From Polaribacter sp. (lineage in GTDB: Bacteria; Bacteroidota; Bacteroidia; Flavobacteriales; Flavobacteriaceae), in NCBI GenBank assembly GCA_029238315.1, contig JAQWGI010000025.1, positions 30,664 through 94,663 of the forward strand: a DNA stretch of 64,000 nt, given 5' to 3'. Below the pieces are notes generated by a model. That model saw nothing but the letters and a program-made list of their open reading frames with translations. It was not told the origin of the DNA and did not search any database. Made by a program: the position numbers and the translations under genes. Shown piece by piece: positions 57,578 to 64,000 of this stretch. How positions within the stretch are numbered: position 1 is the first letter of the stretch; each line of letters opens with the position of its first letter.

Positions 57578-57697
57578 ATGAATATGGAACAAATAGAGAA
57601 GGTAATAGATGAAAATTTACAAGGAAAAGCACTTGTAAAAGAGCGCAATCCTAAAAACTCAAAAAAACTTTATATAGAAAGTTATGTTCGTACATAA
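57578..57697 (+). pseudogene. miaB: 5' fragment of miaB (tRNA methylthiotransferase) cut by the integrated element
   Basis: The 39-residue frame reads MNMEQIEKVIDENLQGKALV and continues to KKLYIESYVRT before a stop. In flavobacterial MiaB the same start continues IESYGC, where Cys is the first Fe-S ligand. Identity is lost exactly after the Tyr codon plus one G. The remaining 430 or so residues are not in this window. A promoter box precedes it, and its position divergent from topA is the usual place of miaB. I infer that a recombinase-mobilised element inserted here; the rest of miaB may lie beyond the far end of the array. Confidence 0.75.
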
Positions 57698-57699
57698 CT
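57680..57699. other. Junction site: 7-bp inverted arms around 6 bp (left attachment site)
   Basis: AGTTATG-TTCGTA-CATAACT is a perfect inverted repeat around a 6-base centre, the usual geometry of a tyrosine-recombinase core site. The left arm is also miaB coding sequence (codons for Ser-Tyr), and it equals the first bases of the first cassette core, GTTATGCAC. Confidence 0.7.
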
Positions 57700-57734
57700 A
57701 CTTTATTTTCAATACTTTACATTTGTTTAATATT

Positions 57735-57755
57735 AAGTTATACCCAAGTTATACC
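57735..57755 (+). repeat. Tandem direct repeats AAGTTATACC upstream of the recombinase gene
   Basis: AAGTTATACC occurs at 57735-57744 and 57746-57755. Both contain GTTATAC, close to the GTTATG core. They could be accessory recombinase-binding sites or an operator, because they lie 36-56 bp before the recombinase ATG. Confidence 0.6.
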
Positions 57756-57790
57756 TAAAATAAGATTTTTTTTAATACCTTTCCGTTTGA

Positions 57791-59509
57791 ATGGAAAGAA
57801 GTAAAAAAAGATTAGAGGTTTTAAGGGAATATGGTTGGAGTGAATCTAACCAAGAACAATTCTTCCAATTTGCTAATAAGATTATAGGAGAAACCTTCAA
57901 GGGAACTTTCACCATCAAACAAGTTAAAAATCGTTGGTTTTGGTATTATAAATTCAGTAATAACAAAATTAGCCCAAGAACAAAATATCTATGTTCTTGT
58001 GATGTTGAATTAGAAAAATCAGAAACATCTTTTCAATTTGCAACTCAAATCTTTTTAGAGAAAATAAATCATAATTTTTCCAACAAGAATGTAATTGAAC
58101 CTTTACTATCAAAATATGTGAAAGAATACATTTCAATTTGCATGGAAGATGGTGGTTTAGAATACAAAAAAAGAGGTTCTTCTCATGTTTTAACTTATAA
58201 TTCAGAAATAGAAACCAAACGAAATATATCAACAATGAAAAGAAGAGTTATTACTCTTACTGAATTTGATTTGTTCTGTTTGGAAAAAAAGATAAAAACA
58301 ATTGATGCGGGAAAAAGTGAAGATTTTAGAGTTGTGATTAAAGAATATCTTTTGAAACTCAAATCAAGGAATAAAAAAGGGAGAAATGGTGATGAGGTTG
58401 GAAAAAATAAATTATCAAGAGCAACTCTAAAATTACATCTCCAATCAGTTCGTATGTTTCTAAATTGGATTTGTAAACCGGTAAGTGAGTTTGGAAAAGG
58501 TATTCTTAAACAACATCACATTACAGTTGGTTATCAAAATTTACTTCTAAATACAGTAATGGGTGAGGTAAAAAATGAACAAAGAATATTTGAGGATTTC
58601 AGTAGAAAAAATTATGAGAAGGTTTTAACAGATTGTCAAAATTATATTGCTGAAACTTGGAGATTGTATTGTAAGTATAATGGTGATAGAGAGAGAATAC
58701 GAGAAGAAAGATTTAGTTATAATAAAAAACTAAAAGATGGCACACTAAACGGAAATAAACATAAAAATCAACCAAAGGAAATGATTGTAATGAGTGATAT
58801 TGTTTTCTTTGTTAGTTTCATTCAATTAGGATATGGAACAAGAATTACAGAAATATTACAAAGTTTTAGAAATTTTGATGCATGGAAAAAAAATGCTAAA
58901 AATGTAAAAACCCAAGTAAGTTCTTATTTGAGTAAAGATGATGGAGATGAAGAAAACTCACACCACTACAACCTTGTAATTAATAATTCAAAAAAGAAGA
59001 GTAGAACTATTCCTATTACAGATGTAATATTCTCTTGGAACGAACCACCAAAAGGAGTTCCATTTCAAAAGAGGAAAAGAAATAAAGAAGAAAGATATGA
59101 TGTATGGGAAACTAATATTATTGATGTAATATTTGAATTGTTTTATCCAAAAGAACATCCTAAAACTTTTCCTTCACCTAACCTCAACGAAAAACCTTAT
59201 GAGGGATATTCTACTAATTGGTATATGAATATATTCAAAAAGAGATTGGTAAATAGTGAAGATTTGAATTGGAAAAAATATGGTATTTCAACCTCTCATC
59301 ACCTTCGTTCATACTTTGTATCATATATGTTTTTGCAAGATGTGAGAATTGAAGATGTGATTGAAATAACAGGTCATTCATATACAACTGCTATTTCTTA
59401 TTACAGAAGAATTAATACACAAATGATGAGGGATACTTTATCACATAGAGATTTGAAATCTATTTTACAGAAGAATAAGATTAACAATAAAAAGAGTTAT
59501 GCACAATAA
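57791..59509 (+). CDS. Large tyrosine recombinase at the head of the cassette array
   Basis: The 572-residue protein carries the complete catalytic set: R351 in LGYGTRITEIL, H503-R506 in SHHLRSYF, H529 in ITGHSY, and Y538 in SYYRRI. NNSKKKSRTIPI may give the beta-hairpin Lys. A core-binding helix region with RATLKLHLQSVRMFLNWI lies near residue 212. It is much longer than Xer or IntI proteins (about 300-340). The Arg-to-His interval is 152 residues, against about 96 in XerD and 131 in IntI1 as I recall them, leaving room for an insertion. Its last codons (Tyr-Ala-Gln-stop) overlap the first cassette core at 59496-59504. It is transcribed toward the array. Confidence 0.93.
   Translation: MERSKKRLEVLREYGWSESNQEQFFQFANKIIGETFKGTFTIKQVKNRWFWYYKFSNNKISPRTKYLCSCDVELEKSETSFQFATQIFLEKINHNFSNKNVIEPLLSKYVKEYISICMEDGGLEYKKRGSSHVLTYNSEIETKRNISTMKRRVITLTEFDLFCLEKKIKTIDAGKSEDFRVVIKEYLLKLKSRNKKGRNGDEVGKNKLSRATLKLHLQSVRMFLNWICKPVSEFGKGILKQHHITVGYQNLLLNTVMGEVKNEQRIFEDFSRKNYEKVLTDCQNYIAETWRLYCKYNGDRERIREERFSYNKKLKDGTLNGNKHKNQPKEMIVMSDIVFFVSFIQLGYGTRITEILQSFRNFDAWKKNAKNVKTQVSSYLSKDDGDEENSHHYNLVINNSKKKSRTIPITDVIFSWNEPPKGVPFQKRKRNKEERYDVWETNIIDVIFELFYPKEHPKTFPSPNLNEKPYEGYSTNWYMNIFKKRLVNSEDLNWKKYGISTSHHLRSYFVSYMFLQDVRIEDVIEITGHSYTTAISYYRRINTQMMRDTLSHRDLKSILQKNKINNKKSYAQ
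59496..59504 (+). other. First cassette boundary (attI-like) inside the recombinase 3' end
   Basis: GTTATGCAC lies in the last codons of the recombinase gene, and its exact reverse complement GTGCATAAC stands at 60459-60467, the end of the first cassette. The crossover point is expected after the G, so the first cassette supplies the end of the recombinase frame. Confidence 0.75.
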
Positions 59510-59559
59510 GGAAAAGTAATAGTCGTTTCTAAAAATAATATAATTTAAACACAATACGA

Positions 59560-60450
59560 ATGAAAAAATCAATTTTACTATTTACTATCTTATTAACAAT
59601 TCTTAGTAGTTGTGATAAAGATGATGTAAACGCCAATTCAGAATCCTGTTATACAAATTCAAACGCCCAATCAATCGTTCATGATGGCATAAATAGAGAA
59701 TATGTGTTGTATATGCCTAACTCTTATGACGGTGCAACCGCAGTTCCCGTGTTGTTTAATTTTCATGGTTTTGGAGGAAGTGCAAGTGAATTTATGCAAG
59801 AAGCAGATATGCGCTCATTGGCAGAAGCTGACACTTTTATTTTAATCTATCCTCAAGGAAGTTGTTTAGACGGTTCTTCTCACTGGAATGCTTGTCCTGC
59901 TGGTGGAGACAATAAAAGTAATGCTGATGATTTTGGTTTTGTCGAAGCCATAATAAATGAGCTTTCATCTCAATATAATGTTGATGTGGAGAGAATTTAT
60001 GCCGCTGGATATTCAAATGGTGGTATGATGGCATATGGACTTGCGAATTATAAAAGTGATTTAATTGCTGCGGTAGCATCTGTTTCTGGAGCAATGTTAG
60101 ATTGTACGGGACCTACAAATCATCCTATGCCTGTAGTACATCTTCATGGAACTTCTGATGGAGTTCTCCCCTATAATGGAGGCAATGGTTGGAACTCTGC
60201 GCAAAGTACCTTAGACCATTGGATTGATTTTAATAATACAACAACAAATCCAACTGTAAGCACTGACAATAGCGGAGGTATGACAATTGAGCATTATGCC
60301 TATGACCAAGGAGATAGCTCAGTTTCTGTTGAGCATTATAAATACATTGGAGGAGACCATGTTTGGTTTAACGCAACTTTTCAAGGTCAGAACACATCTG
60401 AAATCGTTTGGGGTTTTGTATCACAGTATGATATAAATGGATTGAGATAA
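59560..60450 (+). CDS. Cassette 1: LpqC/polyhydroxybutyrate-depolymerase-like esterase lipoprotein
   Basis: The 296-residue protein has a lipobox (TILSSCDKD). Its alpha/beta-hydrolase fold shows VLFNFHGFGGSASEFMQ, FILIYPQGSC, CPAGGDNKSNADDFGFVEAII, the nucleophile elbow AAGYSNGGMMAYGLA, HLHGTSDGVLPY with the likely Asp, and GGDHVW with the likely His. It resembles feruloyl esterase and PHB depolymerase families. It lies 51 bp after the recombinase and is the sole gene of the first unit (59497-60585). Confidence 0.85.
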   Translation: MKKSILLFTILLTILSSCDKDDVNANSESCYTNSNAQSIVHDGINREYVLYMPNSYDGATAVPVLFNFHGFGGSASEFMQEADMRSLAEADTFILIYPQGSCLDGSSHWNACPAGGDNKSNADDFGFVEAIINELSSQYNVDVERIYAAGYSNGGMMAYGLANYKSDLIAAVASVSGAMLDCTGPTNHPMPVVHLHGTSDGVLPYNGGNGWNSAQSTLDHWIDFNNTTTNPTVSTDNSGGMTIEHYAYDQGDSSVSVEHYKYIGGDHVWFNATFQGQNTSEIVWGFVSQYDINGLR

Positions 60451-60458
60451 AGAATAAA

Positions 60459-60593
60459 GTGCATAACAATGTATATAAAAAATAGGCGAAACAGTAATAA
60501 ATTCAAGGCTTTTGGTTCTTATCAAAGTTTGTACTTAACTGAAAGTTCTGTGCTTAGAAATCGCCTACTTTTCATATACTAAACGTTACCTGC
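60459..60593 (+). repeat. attC-like site A (ends cassette 1)
   Basis: The 135-bp imperfect palindrome has GTGCATAAC, a 3-nt spacer (AAT) and GTATATAAAAAATAGGCGA on the left. On the right it has TCGCCTACTTTTCATATAC, a 5-nt spacer (TAAAC) and GTTACCTGC. The unequal spacers mimic the unpaired bases of integron attC sites. Confidence 0.8.
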
Positions 60594-60628
60594 AAGTTGA
60601 ACAAAAAAACGTCACATAGAAGAAAATT

Positions 60629-61186
60629 ATGAAAAAAACTATAATATATTTCCTCTTTACAGCCATATTAGTTGGATGTAATATGAATCCAAATAAAGAA
60701 GAAAGGATAAAAAAACTCGAAACCGATAATGAAATATTATTGAAAAAAATAGGTAACCTTGAGAATAAAATTGAATCAAACCAAACTAATAAAACAGTTA
60801 CAAAAGAAAACAATATGGATTTAGGAGCATTTTCAGTTAGTCTTAGTGTTAAAGACTTAAAAGTATCAAAGAAGTTTTATGAAAATCTTGGGTTTATACA
60901 ACTCGGAGGAGATTTGGAAAAAAACTATCTAATAATGAAAAATCAAAATTCAGTAATTGGGTTATTCCAAGGTATGTTTGAGGGTAATATATTAACTTTT
61001 AACCCAGGTTGGGATGAAAACGCAAAAGAAATTGAAACTTTTGTCGATGTTAGAAAAATTCAGGAAGAATTAAAAAGTAATGGAATTAATATTGGAACTG
61101 AAATCGATAAAAGTACTTCAGGACCTGCGAGTTTTATGACAACTGACCCAGACGGAAATGTAATCTTAATTGACCAACATAGATAA
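60629..61186 (+). CDS. Cassette 2: VOC/glyoxalase-fold lipoprotein
   Basis: The 185-residue protein has a lipobox (ILVGCNMN). A short coiled coil follows at residues 22-55 (ERIKKLETDNEILLKKIGNLENKI). One VOC domain begins near residue 66 (GAFSVSLSVKDLKVSKKFYENLGF) and ends PASFMTTDPDGNVILIDQH. VOC proteins bind metal and small molecules in glyoxalases, dioxygenases and resistance proteins. A single VOC module tethered to the envelope is unusual, and no function can be given. Unit limits are 60586-61404. Confidence 0.85.
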   Translation: MKKTIIYFLFTAILVGCNMNPNKEERIKKLETDNEILLKKIGNLENKIESNQTNKTVTKENNMDLGAFSVSLSVKDLKVSKKFYENLGFIQLGGDLEKNYLIMKNQNSVIGLFQGMFEGNILTFNPGWDENAKEIETFVDVRKIQEELKSNGINIGTEIDKSTSGPASFMTTDPDGNVILIDQHR

Positions 61187-61213
61187 TAGAATTATACAGG
61201 TTAAAAAAAGCCA

Positions 61214-61413
61214 GCAGGTAACAATGTATATAAAACATAGCTATTACAGGCTTTCCGAGAGGTTTGTGTATATTTTCGAAGTCCGCCAAATTTTTTAATT
61301 TGGCTTTTTGATAAAATAAGATAAAAAGAAAATTAAAAAATTCGGCTCGTGCATAATCCGAAAGGTAAGTGTCTATTTACACGCTACGTTTCATATACGA
61401 GACGTTGTGGCAC
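61214..61413 (+). repeat. attC-like site B (ends cassette 2)
   Basis: The 200-bp site runs from GCAGGTAAC (reverse complement of GTTACCTGC at 60585) to GTTGTGGCAC. Outer arms are GTATATAAAACATAGC and GCTACGTTTCATATAC. Inside is a perfect hairpin, GCCAAATT-TTTT-AATTTGGC, and TTCGG...CCGAA. It is nearly identical to site D (about eight differences over 180 bp by eye). Confidence 0.82.
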
Positions 61414-61428
61414 ATTTAAGAAAACCCT

Positions 61429-61962
61429 ATGAAAACATTAATATTTCTCATTTATTTACCAATTCTAATCGGATTTAGTACGTCTGAAACTGATAATTTC
61501 GAGATTGAAAACGGCAAATTAATATGGCAAAAAGTTTATGAAACTGAATTGACAAAGGAGCAGTTAACTGACAAAATTAAAAATTCAGGTAATTTCAAAA
61601 ATGTGGAATTAAACGAGAGCGGAATAATTGCGGAAATCACAAATCTTACACTTGACTACAAAGGATATGGTTTGTCCGAAATGTCAACGCCAATTTATAT
61701 TGCAAGAAATAGCGTAAATTCTTTCGTGCAAATTGAGTTTAAAGAGAGTAAATATCGTGTGTCTATCAAAAATATAAAATTGAAACAAAATTATGATGAT
61801 GCTTTATCAAATCAAGGTGAAATGACTGATTTAGAAGTTTTCGCACTCAAGAAAAGAAACACAGAATTTAAATCAAGTTTTCTAGAAAAATCATCTAAAA
61901 TTATAAACTTTACATTCGAAAATATAACTGAATTTAAAGTAAAAGAAAAAGACAAGTGGTAA
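61429..61962 (+). CDS. Cassette 3: unknown exported protein (possibly DUF4468-like)
   Basis: The 177-residue protein starts MKTLIFLIYLPILIGFSTSE, a Sec signal with no lipobox Cys. The mature part (NGKLIWQKVYETELTKEQLTDKIKN, then a beta-rich middle FVQIEFKESKYRVSIKNIKL) recalls DUF4468, a TBP-like fold of exported Bacteroidota proteins, but I am not certain. The start codon is 24 bp from the unit boundary, the same distance as in cassette 4. Unit limits 61405-62100. Confidence 0.7.
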   Translation: MKTLIFLIYLPILIGFSTSETDNFEIENGKLIWQKVYETELTKEQLTDKIKNSGNFKNVELNESGIIAEITNLTLDYKGYGLSEMSTPIYIARNSVNSFVQIEFKESKYRVSIKNIKLKQNYDDALSNQGEMTDLEVFALKKRNTEFKSSFLEKSSKIINFTFENITEFKVKEKDKW

Positions 61963-61969
61963 GAAAAAC

Positions 61970-62109
61970 GTGCCACAACACCGTGTATAAAAAATTGCTA
62001 TTTTTAGCTTCACCAAAAGTTGTTGCTCTTTTGCCAACTTCAGAATTTCCGTTGGAAATTCCTCGTTGACAAAATCGCAACTTTTTATACACGTAGAACG
62101 TTGTGCGTA
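61970..62109 (+). repeat. attC-like site C (ends cassette 3)
   Basis: The 140-bp site begins GTGCCACAAC, reverse complement of GTTGTGGCAC at 61404, and ends GTTGTGCGTA. Arms are GTGTATAAAAAATTGC and GCAACTTTTTATACAC. The interior differs from sites B and D but has its own hairpin, GAATTTCC-GTT-GGAAATTC. The ends are conserved although the middle is not, as expected for attC sites. Confidence 0.8.
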
Positions 62110-62124
62110 ATTTGACCAAACCAT

Positions 62125-62874
62125 ATGAAAAAAACAACATTATTGATTTTTCTGATTTTAGGTACTTTAAATGTCTTTAGTCAAAACATAAAAACTGACT
62201 CTTTAAAACAGAAGGAAAATATTAAATTTAAATACGAAACTTTAATTGTACCAACTGTATTAATTGGTTATGGAATTGTTGGTCTTGAAAGTCACACACT
62301 TGAATCAATAAATACGAATACAAGAGATGAAATAATTGAAAACATTGACAATAAATTTACTATCGATGATTTTTCACAATATAGTCCATTCTTAACTGTG
62401 TACGGATTAAATGCAATCGGAATTAAAGGAAAAAACAATTTTAAGGATAGAACAATAATTTTAGGAACTGCTTATCTCATTATGGGAGGAACTGTGAATA
62501 TAATTAAGAGAACTGGTAATGTTGAAAGACCTGATGGTTCTTCTAAAAACTCTTTTCCTTCTGGTCATACTGCAACAGCATTTATGGGAGCTGAATTTTT
62601 GTATCAAGAATACAAAGATGTTTCTATTTGGTATGGCGTTGCTGGTTACGTTGTAGCAACAGGAACTGGAATGTTCAGAATGTATAATAATAGACATTGG
62701 CTGACTGATGTTGCAGCAGGTGCTGGGATTGGAATTTTAAGCACTAAAATCGCTTACTGGATTCATCCTTTAATAAAAAGAACGATATTTAAAGACAGAG
62801 AAAGTGCAAACGGAATTGTTATGCCTTTTTATAATGGACGAGAATATGGATTAGGATTATCAATGACATTCTGA
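62125..62874 (+). CDS. Cassette 4: PAP2-type membrane phosphatase
   Basis: The 249-residue protein has a signal peptide (GTLNVFSQN) and membrane segments. The three phosphatase motifs are KRTGNVERPDGSSKNSF, FPSGHTAT and RMYNNRHWLTDVAAGAGIG, so the catalytic His residues are present. Relatives remove phosphate from lipid phosphates such as undecaprenyl pyrophosphate or lipid A. It has a C-terminal extension, FYNGREYGLGLSMTF, that looks like an outer-membrane strand. Unit limits 62101-63075. Confidence 0.88.
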   Translation: MKKTTLLIFLILGTLNVFSQNIKTDSLKQKENIKFKYETLIVPTVLIGYGIVGLESHTLESINTNTRDEIIENIDNKFTIDDFSQYSPFLTVYGLNAIGIKGKNNFKDRTIILGTAYLIMGGTVNIIKRTGNVERPDGSSKNSFPSGHTATAFMGAEFLYQEYKDVSIWYGVAGYVVATGTGMFRMYNNRHWLTDVAAGAGIGILSTKIAYWIHPLIKRTIFKDRESANGIVMPFYNGREYGLGLSMTF

Positions 62875-62882
62875 AAAAAAAC

Positions 62883-63084
62883 TACGCACAACAACGTATA
62901 TAAAACATAGCTATTACGGGCTTTCCGAGAGGTTTGTGTGTATTTGCGAAGTCCGCCAAATTTTTTAATTTGGCTTTTTGAAAAAATAAGATAAAAAGAA
63001 AATTAAAAAATTCGGCTCGTGCATAATCCGAAAGTTTAGCGTCTATTTACACGCTACGTTTCATATACACGACCGTTGTAACAC
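62883..63084 (+). repeat. attC-like site D (ends cassette 4)
   Basis: The 202-bp site begins TACGCACAAC, the exact reverse complement of GTTGTGCGTA at 62100, and ends GTTGTAACAC. Outer arms and inner hairpins match site B, although the neighbouring genes are unrelated. Confidence 0.82.
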
Positions 63085-63104
63085 ATTTAAATAAAAACTA
63101 AACA

Positions 63105-63635
63105 ATGAAACACATTTTATTACTATTGACTATTTTAACATTTACTTTTTCTTGTTCAAGTGATGATTCTACAGAAACTGAACCTCAAAACCAATTTCCG
63201 ACAAATATCTCTATTGAAAATTCTCAATCCCTACAGGTTGGTGATATATTAACAATCAACGGAAATGGTTTTTCAATAAACGAAACTTATATCATAACTT
63301 TTAGCGATAACGAAGTTGCCACAATAACCGAAATAAATAGCAACTATCTCAAAGTAGAAGTGCCAGAAAATGCTGTGTCTGGTAACATAATATTGACTTA
63401 TGATAATCAAGATGAAGTTATAGGGAATATAACTATTGACCAATCAATTTCTGAATTTGAGTTGTTTGCCTCAATGAGAAATATAGTTGCAGCAATTGAA
63501 AAAGATACTGGGGTTCAGAATCAAATTGCGGATTTAGGGCAAGATATATCTATAAGTAGTTTAGTATTTGACAGTACATCAAATTCAATTTACGCAGTAG
63601 CTCCATTCGATGATAATGGTCCTGTAGAAGAAAAT
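63105..63635 (+). pseudogene. Cassette 5: IPT/TIG-domain lipoprotein truncated by an IS6-family element
   Basis: The protein has a lipobox (FTFSCSSDD) and one IPT/TIG domain near residues 30-105 (SLQVGDILTINGNGFSINETYIITFSDNEVATI). A second region follows (ASMRNIVAAIEKDTGVQNQ). About 177 native residues remain, to PVEEN. The frame continues into the IS terminal repeat and ends at 63755 with 39 foreign residues, so it is broken. The unit begins at GTTGTAACAC (63075); its end is outside the window. Confidence 0.8.
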
Positions 63636-64000
63636 GGTTCTGTCGCATCTAATGTAATGAAAAATTTTATTTTTTTATATTTACAACAAAAAAGATGTTC
63701 AAAGGTCACTGTTTTCCTAAAGCAATCATATTACAAGCTGTTTACTTCAAATTAAAGTTTAGTCTTAGCTATAGAGATGTAGAAGAACTTTTATCTATCA
63801 GAGGAGTCAAAGTGGATTATGCTACTATTCAACGCTGGGTATTCAAATTCACACCCCTTGTAGAACAACAATTCAGAAAGAGAAAAAAATTAGTTGGAAA
63901 AAGGTGGAGACTAGATGAAACCTATATTAAGGTAAAGGGTGAGTGGAGATATTTATACAGAGCAGTTGATAAAGAAGGGAATACTGTAGACTTTTTGTTA
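63636..64000 (+). mobile_element. IS6-family insertion sequence (left part)
   Basis: The terminal repeat GGTTCTGTCGCATCT at 63636-63650 resembles the GGTTCTGTTGCA ends of IS6/IS26-type elements. The transposase starts 44 bp inside. The element disrupts cassette 5 and continues past the window. The 8 bases before it (63628-63635, AAGAAAAT) are the candidate target duplication. Confidence 0.85.
63695..64000 (+). CDS. IS6-family DDE transposase (5' part)
   Basis: The visible 102 residues start MFKGHCFPKAIILQAVYFKL. They contain YRDVEELLSIRGVKVDYATIQRWV, the IS6 N-terminal helix-turn-helix, then RWRLDETYIKVKGEWRYLYRAVDKEGNTVDFLL, with the first catalytic Asp in WRLDETYI. It is cut by the window edge. 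It is the only transposase seen in the window. Confidence 0.95.
   Translation, partial: MFKGHCFPKAIILQAVYFKLKFSLSYRDVEELLSIRGVKVDYATIQRWVFKFTPLVEQQFRKRKKLVGKRWRLDETYIKVKGEWRYLYRAVDKEGNTVDFLL

What the first reader, a model, noticed from the sequence alone, without database searches (positions are those of the whole stretch)
57681..63636. Integron-like cassette array headed by a non-IntI tyrosine recombinase
After the 572-aa recombinase come five single-gene units in one orientation with unrelated products (esterase, VOC protein, unknown, PAP2 phosphatase, IPT/TIG protein). The first four are each closed by a 135-200 bp imperfect palindrome (A-D) that has conserved ends and a variable middle. 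This is integron logic, but the recombinase is far larger than IntI, points toward the array rather than away, and the core is about ACGTTRYNN rather than GTTRRRY. I know no named system with this combination.
Basis: partly seen in the sequence, partly recalled or inferred. Interest (0 to 1): 0.95.

Follow-up and report, generated by a model that had tools for sequence, protein, structure and literature searches.

The report
Bacteroidota integron cassettes without IntI
This is a row of gene cassettes, one of which also turns up, cut at the same ends, in two other bacteria, from an integron-like gene-capture system spread across the Bacteroidota whose likely integrase lacks the protein domain used to recognise integrons; here the cassettes sit next to the unrelated recombinase of what is likely a separate mobile element lodged in the gene miaB.

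Summary
In detail: sites A-D are folded recombination-type sites, and their arms follow cassette logic: the first bases of each cassette are the reverse complement of the bases before its own closing site (GTTACCTGC/GCAGGTAAC and so on). Cassette 1 begins inside the last codons of the 572-aa recombinase gene.

The 572-aa enzyme is probably not the array's integrase: it follows a miaB stub in 6 of 6 loci, and none of eight related loci has a chained site. It is most likely the integrase of a miaB-targeting element that carries the array.

The likely integrase is a ~385-aa tyrosine recombinase on another contig of this genome, heading its own attI-like site and array. It matches 243 of 397 genomes of the family; 37 of 42 loci examined have sites downstream (189, versus 3 upstream), as do 13 of 20 in other families. 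All 41 enzymes aligned lack the IntI-specific domain. Only 20 of 315 sites match GTTRRRY. A 3,879-bp cassette is 99.3% identical in two genera at different array positions.

No paper listed in ten searches describes this. Recombination itself is untested.

The parts
57578..57697 (+). 5' stub of miaB (about codons 1-36, then out of homology); the left end of the miaB-inserted element lies at about 57685
   Evidence: tblastn of MiaB of G131 matches 57578-57685; the rest of miaB (residues 23-434 of that query) is at the end of contig C25
57736..57763 (+). two direct repeats AGTTATACC; similar repeats at the right end of the element on C25 and before the recombinase in L010 and L012 (not in L011, L025, L026); possible arm-binding sites of the 572-aa integrase
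   Evidence: the role is inferred
57791..59509 (+). 572-aa tyrosine recombinase, likely integrase of the miaB element, not of the cassettes; its last codons (about SYAQ and the stop) come from cassette 1
59496..60584 (+). cassette 1 (esterase); starts GTTATGCAC, ends GTGCATAAC plus site A; found as a unit in G432 and G412
60465..60587 (+). site A (attC-like)
60585..61403 (+). cassette 2 (VOC/glyoxalase lipoprotein); GTTACCTGC / GCAGGTAAC
61220..61406 (+). site B (attC-like)
61404..62099 (+). cassette 3 (unknown protein); GTTGTGGCAC / GTGCCACAAC
61977..62102 (+). site C (attC-like)
62100..63074 (+). cassette 4 (PAP2 phosphatase); GTTGTGCGTA / TACGCACAAC
62890..63077 (+). site D (attC-like); 95% identical to B and 83% to a site in the C34 array of the same genome
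63075..63635 (+). cassette 5, incomplete (TIG-domain gene), cut by an insertion sequence
63636..64000 (+). start of an IS240-like insertion sequence; the contig ends here
   Evidence: PF13610; the left end at 63636 is read by eye

Best explanation
The stretch is a run of four complete gene cassettes and a broken fifth, belonging to an integron-like system found across the Bacteroidota; they were likely inserted at the 3' end of the 572-aa recombinase gene by a different, ~385-aa tyrosine recombinase encoded on another contig of the same genome. Each cassette is one gene (sometimes more) plus one attC-like site. The cassette starts with GTT and a short cassette-specific sequence and ends with the reverse complement of that sequence (including AAC) followed by the rest of the site, so a cut-out circle would carry one complete folded site (this geometry is shown by sequence). 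By analogy with integrons, one strand of the site would fold into the hairpin (6 bp, A.C mismatch, 4 bp, A.C mismatch, 4 bp), the ~385-aa recombinase would cut next to GTT, and the cassette would join at the attI-like site after that enzyme's gene (44-224 nt on, 18 of 23 between 87 and 139 nt), or now and then at a secondary GTT elsewhere (inferred). In the window the receiving GTT lies in the last codons of the 572-aa gene, which is itself likely the integrase of an element inserted in miaB; the cassettes would then be passengers of that element.
For: Site structure: 10 of 17 pairs show double changes, 0 of 500 shuffles reach the observed covariation score (17 sites with their middles left out). 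On 315 sites the unscored A.C mismatches are present in 263 and 278, and the unscored third helix pairs in 1,089 of 1,260 positions. Cassette logic: 190 of 266 adjacent pairs match over 6 nt versus mean 6.5, maximum 14 shuffled. Integrase: the recombinase matches 243 of 397 genomes of the family at E <= 1e-50; 37 of 42 loci examined have sites downstream, 189 sites in 476 kb versus 3 in 176 kb upstream. Eight of the 42 were known beforehand to have sites on the same contig; without them it is 29 of 34, and four of the five misses hold under 700 bases downstream. Other families: 13 of 20 loci. attI-like junction in 23 of 42 loci. Mobility: a 3,879-bp cassette 99.3% identical between two genera whose recombinases are 61% identical, at attI in one and second in the other; cassette 1 of the window with the same boundaries in G432 (other family) and G412. 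miaB: stub in 6 of 6 loci of the 572-aa family, restored miaB after a whole element in L011, missing miaB part on C25.
Against: No recombination was measured; the association is positional. 38 of 315 sites have no upstream 8-mer partner. One recombinase locus with 14 kb downstream has no site (L122); in other families 7 of 20 have none, four of them with about 14 kb downstream. In 19 of 42 loci no chained cassette start was found within 260 nt of the recombinase. The window array has no adjacent ~385-aa recombinase, so its use of the C34 enzyme is in trans and inferred. Sites were found with a scanner tuned on the first 17, so pair counts on the larger set lean towards the structure except at the unscored positions. 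In G432 a related esterase gene stands just before the cassette, so that single case could be read differently. The array and the right end of the element are separated by a contig break, so that the array lies inside the element rests on contig order. AGTTATACC repeats are missing before the recombinase in L011, L025 and L026.
Confidence: 0.88

Rival explanations
1. One reading: the 572-aa recombinase is the integrase of the array, and the array is its attI-side cargo.
For: It is directly upstream, in the same orientation, and cassette 1 begins inside its 3' end. In the ~385-aa systems the integrase also points toward its array, so orientation alone does not speak against it.
Against: None of the eight other loci of this family examined has a chained site (one unchained hit in L025), though L010 and L013 hold only 409 and 817 bases downstream. 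All 6 loci with a near-complete enzyme have a miaB stub just upstream, as expected of an element integrase. Its closest relative (P0001, 92%) has a different C-terminus, so cassette 1 is likely not at that place there. A different recombinase heads such arrays elsewhere.
Confidence: 0.06
2. A canonical integron whose IntI lies elsewhere in the genome or was missed, so that the array is an ordinary CALIN.
For: The architecture is that of a CALIN. One attC of the Polaribacter phage P12002L was recombined by IntI1 in published work (PMC9892861, passages read), and that phage carries sites of the present type; whether the tested one is among them I could not tell.
Against: No TIGR02249 match at E <= 1e-70 in 378 family genomes (its built-in controls rang in none, so weak alone). 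In one search a known IntI1 scored 508 bits while G000, G145, G409 and a Chryseobacterium plasmid gave only sub-threshold split matches. Only 20 of 315 sites carry GTTRRRY.
Confidence: 0.04
3. The repeats are terminators or dispersed palindromic repeats (BIME- or MITE-like) between ordinary genes, without cassette function.
For: They are palindromic, lie after stop codons, and B and D are near-identical copies.
Against: The flank complementarity runs across each cassette (190 of 266 versus 6.5); a terminator would not need it. Whole gene-plus-site units with the same boundaries occur in other genomes. The sites cluster on one side of one recombinase.
Confidence: 0.02

Closest known systems
Integrons (IntI, attI, attC cassette arrays; chromosomal superintegrons)
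   Same: Tyrosine recombinase next to an attI-like site, then an array of mostly one-orientation cassettes each with one imperfectly palindromic site; unpaired spacer between inner and outer boxes; GTT at the boundary; large arrays (68 sites in 59.7 kb in G409); a shared cassette at the integrase-proximal end in one genome.
   Different: The recombinase lacks the IntI-specific domain (17 versus 58 residues in that stretch, 41 of 41), has an extra N-terminal part, and points toward its array; the bases after GTT are mostly not RRRY; stem of 6-1-4-1-4 with two A.C mismatches.
CALIN (cluster of attC sites lacking an integrase)
   Same: The window array has sites and cassettes but no cognate integrase beside it.
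   Different: The sites are of the Bacteroidota type and the array follows the unrelated integrase of another element.
XerA/XerC/XerD and the 'integron-like' subgroup of simple tyrosine recombinases (PMC8138268, passages read)
   Same: Closest by sequence: NF040815 196 bits, XerD and XerC models matched; an archaeal Xer-like enzyme, XerA and IntI4 are the best PDB matches. [quoted passage not shown]
   Different: All curated NCBIfam cut-offs are missed (G145 enzyme), and these enzymes head cassette arrays.
Integrase-carrying islands in conserved genes, such as the dusA islands (PMC4482086, search listing only)
   Same: The 572-aa enzyme sits at one place near the 5' end of a conserved gene, and the element supplies a new 5' end of the gene (L011).
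   Different: The target is miaB, and the enzyme is barely recognisable by Pfam.

Membership tests
Integron (for the ~385-aa recombinase system) | Integrase of the IntI family with the IntI-specific extra domain | tested here: not met
   17 residues in 41 of 41 versus 58 in IntI1 and 25 in XerD (one of the 42 loci, L116, dropped for a stop); TIGR02249 matched four of these enzymes below cut-off in two pieces, with profile positions ~180-238 empty, versus 508 bits for IntI1
Integron (for the ~385-aa recombinase system) | attI next to the integrase gene, where new cassettes enter | tested here: met
   The first chained cassette start lies within 260 nt of the recombinase in 23 of 42 loci, 16 of these with ATATAA before it; a 99.3% identical cassette lies exactly there in G274 and second in G087. 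Entry at this point is inferred from the sequences.
Integron (for the ~385-aa recombinase system) | attC sites: palindromic, structure conserved rather than sequence, R box GTTRRRY | tested here: inconclusive
   Folded structure, unpaired spacer and covariation met; GTTRRRY in only 20 of 315
Integron (for the ~385-aa recombinase system) | Cassettes are mobile units with one site each | tested here: met
Integron (for the ~385-aa recombinase system) | Integrase-catalysed excision and insertion of a folded single strand | not testable with these tools
   Needs an experiment
Integron (for the ~385-aa recombinase system) | Promoter Pc reading into the array; SOS control of the integrase | not tested
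   No call made
CALIN (for the window array) | Two or more attC sites without a nearby integron integrase | tested here: met
   Four sites; the recombinase beside them is the 572-aa miaB-element enzyme; the contig ends after cassette 5, so one could lie beyond; the sites are not canonical attC by R box
IntI (for the 572-aa recombinase) | Match to IntI or integron integrase models | tested here: not met
   No NCBIfam match; PF00589 15.5 bits versus cut-off 27.1
Site-specific element integrase (for the 572-aa recombinase) | Fixed integration target and a defined element with both ends | tested here: met
   miaB stub upstream in 6 of 6 loci (window, L010 and L026 also by tblastn, L011, L012 and L025 by eye); whole element of about 9.1 kb with restored miaB in L011; both halves of miaB on two contigs in this genome. 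Integrase activity itself not testable here.
XerC/XerD (for the ~385-aa recombinase) | Curated XerC or XerD model over its cut-off | tested here: not met
   G145 enzyme: 171.6 versus 329.6 and 164.5 versus 335.15 bits

The most novel reading that the evidence does not exclude
A second lineage of integrons runs through the Bacteroidota: a Xer/IntI-like recombinase that does folded-hairpin cassette recombination without the IntI domain held to be needed for it, with its own attI and its own class of sites, present in most Flavobacteriaceae, reaching superintegron size, its parts carried also by a plasmid, a phage and a miaB-targeting element, and its integrase invisible to standard integron finders because they demand the IntI domain.
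Probability: 0.75. Interest if true: 0.93.

Novelty: new variant of a known kind. Interest (0 to 1): 0.88.

Why it matters
Integrons are defined and searched for by IntI and its extra domain, described as necessary or essential for integron recombination (PMC9668308 and PMC8138268, passages read); a large survey reported a complete integron in Bacteroidetes proper only in Salinibacter (PMC9024848, passages read). A phylum-wide system without that domain would show that cassette capture does not need it, would open a large unsurveyed pool of mobile genes in marine and other Bacteroidota, and would make the origin of folded-site recombination testable by comparing two lineages.

Tried and rejected
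Rejected: the 572-aa recombinase as array integrase; terminators or plain repeats; Rfam families (only two matches, both below their gathering scores, E 0.13 and 0.94).

Led nowhere or weak: a scan of genome contigs with the single 572-aa protein and of viral contigs with its alignment A1 found nothing; genome contigs with A1 gave four loci. The first site scanners were too permissive. The covariance model misses sites with long middles, so (77 of 397 genomes) undercounts and missed even this genome. The AlphaFold model of the ~385-aa recombinase is poor overall (mean pLDDT 61.6); its N-terminal half (about residues 1-180) is the better part, the catalytic part mostly under 55, and Foldseek gave no clear match for the N-terminal domain. 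TIGR02249 in 378 genomes found nothing, but its controls rang nowhere; a positive control was added. No tree of the recombinases with several IntI was built, so whether this family is a sister of IntI or an independent origin is open. The LexA paper PMC8565304 was searched for integron passages; those shown say nothing on Bacteroidetes integrons.
Full report
WHAT IS IN THE WINDOW. The window is the end of contig C3 of a 2.24-Mb, 37-contig genome. Sites A-D are at 60465-60587, 61220-61406, 61977-62102 and 62890-63077. Most of the sites folded (A and B among them) give directly AAC, 3 nt, 6 bp, a 1x1 mismatch, 4 bp, a 1x1 mismatch, 4 bp, a variable middle, the complementary arm, 5-7 nt, GTT; C has a longer unbroken stem, and for D the program prefers another fold although the same arms are present. 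A structural scanner at threshold 11 finds exactly these four on the + strand of the 64-kb window, and none on the - strand, in shuffles or in the reversed sequence; at threshold 10 the - strand has one and the reversed sequence three.

CASSETTE LOGIC. The bases after GTT at the start of each unit are the exact reverse complement of the bases up to AAC of that unit's own closing site: GTTACCTGC/GCAGGTAAC, GTTGTGGCAC/GTGCCACAAC, GTTGTGCGTA/TACGCACAAC; for unit 1, GTTATGCAC/GTGCATAAC, where the GTT (59496) lies in the last codons of the 572-aa gene. This is what excision as circles with one complete site predicts. Over 315 sites from the recombinase loci and arrays fetched, 277 have an upstream 8-mer partner within 6 kb (by my estimate about one in ten would by chance), and 190 of 266 neighbouring pairs match over 6 nt, against a mean of 6.5 and a maximum of 14 in 200 shuffles; a site's own two flanks match in only 15 of 315. 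In cassettes with an ORF of at least 60 aa the longest ORF is on the array strand in 214 and on the other in 9.

THE SITES ARE CONSERVED STRUCTURES. On 17 sites from the window, G145 and two other contigs of this genome, with their middles left out, 97.6% of cells pair, 10 of 17 pairs have double changes and no shuffle of 500 reaches the covariation score. On the 315 sites, features that the scanner did not score are conserved: A.C at the first mismatch in 263, A.C at the second in 278, and 1,089 of 1,260 pairs in the third helix. Only 20 of 315 carry GTTRRRY.

THE LIKELY INTEGRASE. A weak hit of the 572-aa query led to G145, where a 379-aa tyrosine recombinase stands before seven sites, six of them chained. 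Its homologue in this genome, ~385 aa, lies on contig C34 after a polA-like gene (named from recall) and before an attI-like junction GA|GTTGGGCGTA and its own sites. At E <= 1e-50 the family matches 243 of 397 genomes of the window's family; this threshold may include related enzymes with other roles. I picked 40 loci by hand from the listed matches, plus the two known ones. 37 of 42 have sites downstream (189 sites in 476,225 bases), and upstream there are 3 in 175,865 bases. Six of the 40 were picked knowing that a site lay on the same contig; without these and the two known ones it is 29 of 34. Four of the five misses hold under 700 bases of contig downstream; the fifth (L122) has 14 kb without a site. 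In other Bacteroidota families 13 of 20 loci have sites downstream (27 sites in 222 kb, against 2 in 74 kb upstream); of the seven misses three hold under 1.8 kb and four about 14 kb. In 23 of the 42 loci the first chained cassette start lies within 260 nt of the recombinase, 16 of these with ATATAA just before it. The largest array read has 68 sites, 66 chained, in three stretches of together 59.7 kb (G409), with the recombinase at its head.

NOT IntI. The stretch that holds the IntI-specific domain is 58 residues in IntI1, 25 in XerD and 17 in all 41 family members aligned (of the 42 loci L116 was dropped for a stop inside). TIGR02249 gives 508 bits to IntI1 and 89-116 bits per piece to four of these enzymes, with profile positions about 180-238 unmatched. 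Alignment to IntI4 (2a3v) shows the same gap. The family has an extra N-terminal part: the GKG motif is at a median of 258 in the 14 members with the exact motif, against 176-177 in IntI1 and XerD. The structure model is too poor to say what that part is. IntegronFinder demands the IntI-specific profile (PMC9668308, passages); PMC9024848 says the extra domain tells IntI from other integrases (passages).

MOBILITY. Cassette 1 of the window matches G432, a genome of another family, at 83% over the whole cassette, and G412 at 82%. The match begins at the starting GTT and ends at the closing GTT. In G412 it sits inside an array; in G432 the scanner finds no other site in 20 kb, as after insertion at a secondary GTT, though a related esterase gene stands just before it. 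G087 and G274, of different genera (recombinases 61% identical over 283 aa), share a 3,879-bp cassette at 99.3% identity; in G274 it is directly at the attI-like site, in G087 second in the array; the match runs only 16-17 nt past the boundaries, where the flanking sites are themselves alike. G145 and G306 share a cassette at 88% over its whole length with recombinases 39% identical. In all, 6 pairs of cassettes with at least 80% mutual coverage were found between genomes and 326 within, 325 of the latter in G409.

THE 572-aa RECOMBINASE. Its family (33 proteins; 23 sequences aligned) has invariant R351, H503, L505, R506, G528 and Y538 (reading these as the catalytic set is from recall). In all 6 loci with a near-complete enzyme a truncated start of miaB stands just upstream, ending near the same point (KKLYIESY, before GCQMN); window, L010 and L026 are supported by tblastn, L011, L012 and L025 by eye. 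L011 shows a whole element of about 9.1 kb: miaB stub, recombinase, resolvase-like and other genes, then miaB with a new 5' end. In this genome the stub is at 57578-57697 and the rest of miaB is at the end of contig C25; G131, with a 91% identical TopA, has miaB uninterrupted over the 434 codons held and divergent from topA. Repeats AGTTATACC stand before the enzyme in window, L010 and L012, not in L011, L025 and L026; similar ones are at the right end on C25. I conclude that it is likely the integrase of a miaB-targeting element and that the cassettes are cargo. The relative P0001 (92%) ends KNKISNQKR where the window has KNKINNKKSYAQ, so cassette 1 likely supplied the new C-terminus here. 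Eight other loci of the family have no chained site, but L010 and L013 hold under 1 kb downstream. That the array lies within the element rests on contig order, since C3 ends inside an insertion sequence.

OTHER CARRIERS. A Chryseobacterium plasmid carries a 347-aa recombinase of this type, a CATATAAACAA|GTT sequence after it (read by eye) and a site. Polaribacter phage P12002L carries nine sites at threshold 10 on one strand, six of them with an 8-mer partner, and three on the other strand, one with a partner. Published work reported two attC in that phage, one of which IntI1 recombined, with no recombinants from its top strand (PMC9892861, passages read); I could not map these to my sites. 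It suggests that sites of this kind, or near it, can be substrates of folded-strand recombination.

LITERATURE. Ten searches of the held library listed no paper that describes cassette arrays headed by a non-IntI recombinase in Bacteroidota; two of the lists were cut. The library holds open PubMed Central papers only and no preprints, so prior description elsewhere cannot be excluded. NCBI-derived names call some members 'site-specific tyrosine recombinase/integron integrase', a name also borne by the broad model NF040815. The attC taxon models of PMC8352920 (passages) include no Bacteroidota. [quoted passage not shown] the present family, if it works as proposed, would contradict the second half.

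SHOWN AND INFERRED. Shown by sequence: site structure, cassette geometry, association with the ~385-aa recombinase, absence of the IntI domain, whole cassettes shared between genomes, the miaB position of the 572-aa family. Inferred: catalysis by the ~385-aa enzyme, single-strand folding in the cell, action in trans on the window array, insertion at a secondary GTT, and the miaB element being mobile.

Noticed in passing
G000:C28:15851-16114 (L028 15911-16111): A fragment of the C-terminal part of a 572-aa-type recombinase with several stops, a possible relic of a second miaB-type element.
   Followed up: partly
G000:C27:233360-236951 (L029 9361-12952): A second array without a local ~385-aa recombinase: four sites (three found by the scanner, the first by eye); one cassette holds what look like a metal-response regulator and a transport gene, judged by eye.
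   Followed up: partly
L030 7171-12779: The C34 array of the same genome carries a regulator, DNA methyltransferase-like genes (one seems split) and a partner gene between two sites, and a Fic-like gene later; names judged by eye.
   Followed up: no
L243 (NZ_CP041688.1): A Chryseobacterium plasmid carries a recombinase of the ~385-aa type with an attI-like sequence and at least one site: a plasmid-borne version of the system.
   Followed up: partly
L242 (phage P12002L) 31118-40948: Nine sites of this type lie on the + strand of the phage although nearly all genes there are on the - strand.
   Followed up: partly
G409:C1:2995000-3054900 (L161-L163): An array of 68 sites with many identical or near-identical non-adjacent cassettes.
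   Followed up: partly
L158 (G432): A related but different esterase gene stands about 50 nt before the lone copy of cassette 1.
   Followed up: no
P0033: A protein with type I methylase Pfam domains shares 31% of the 572-aa query at 81% identity, as if a recombinase fragment were fused to it.
   Followed up: no
window 63636-64000: An IS240-like insertion sequence cuts cassette 5, and the contig ends inside it.
   Followed up: partly
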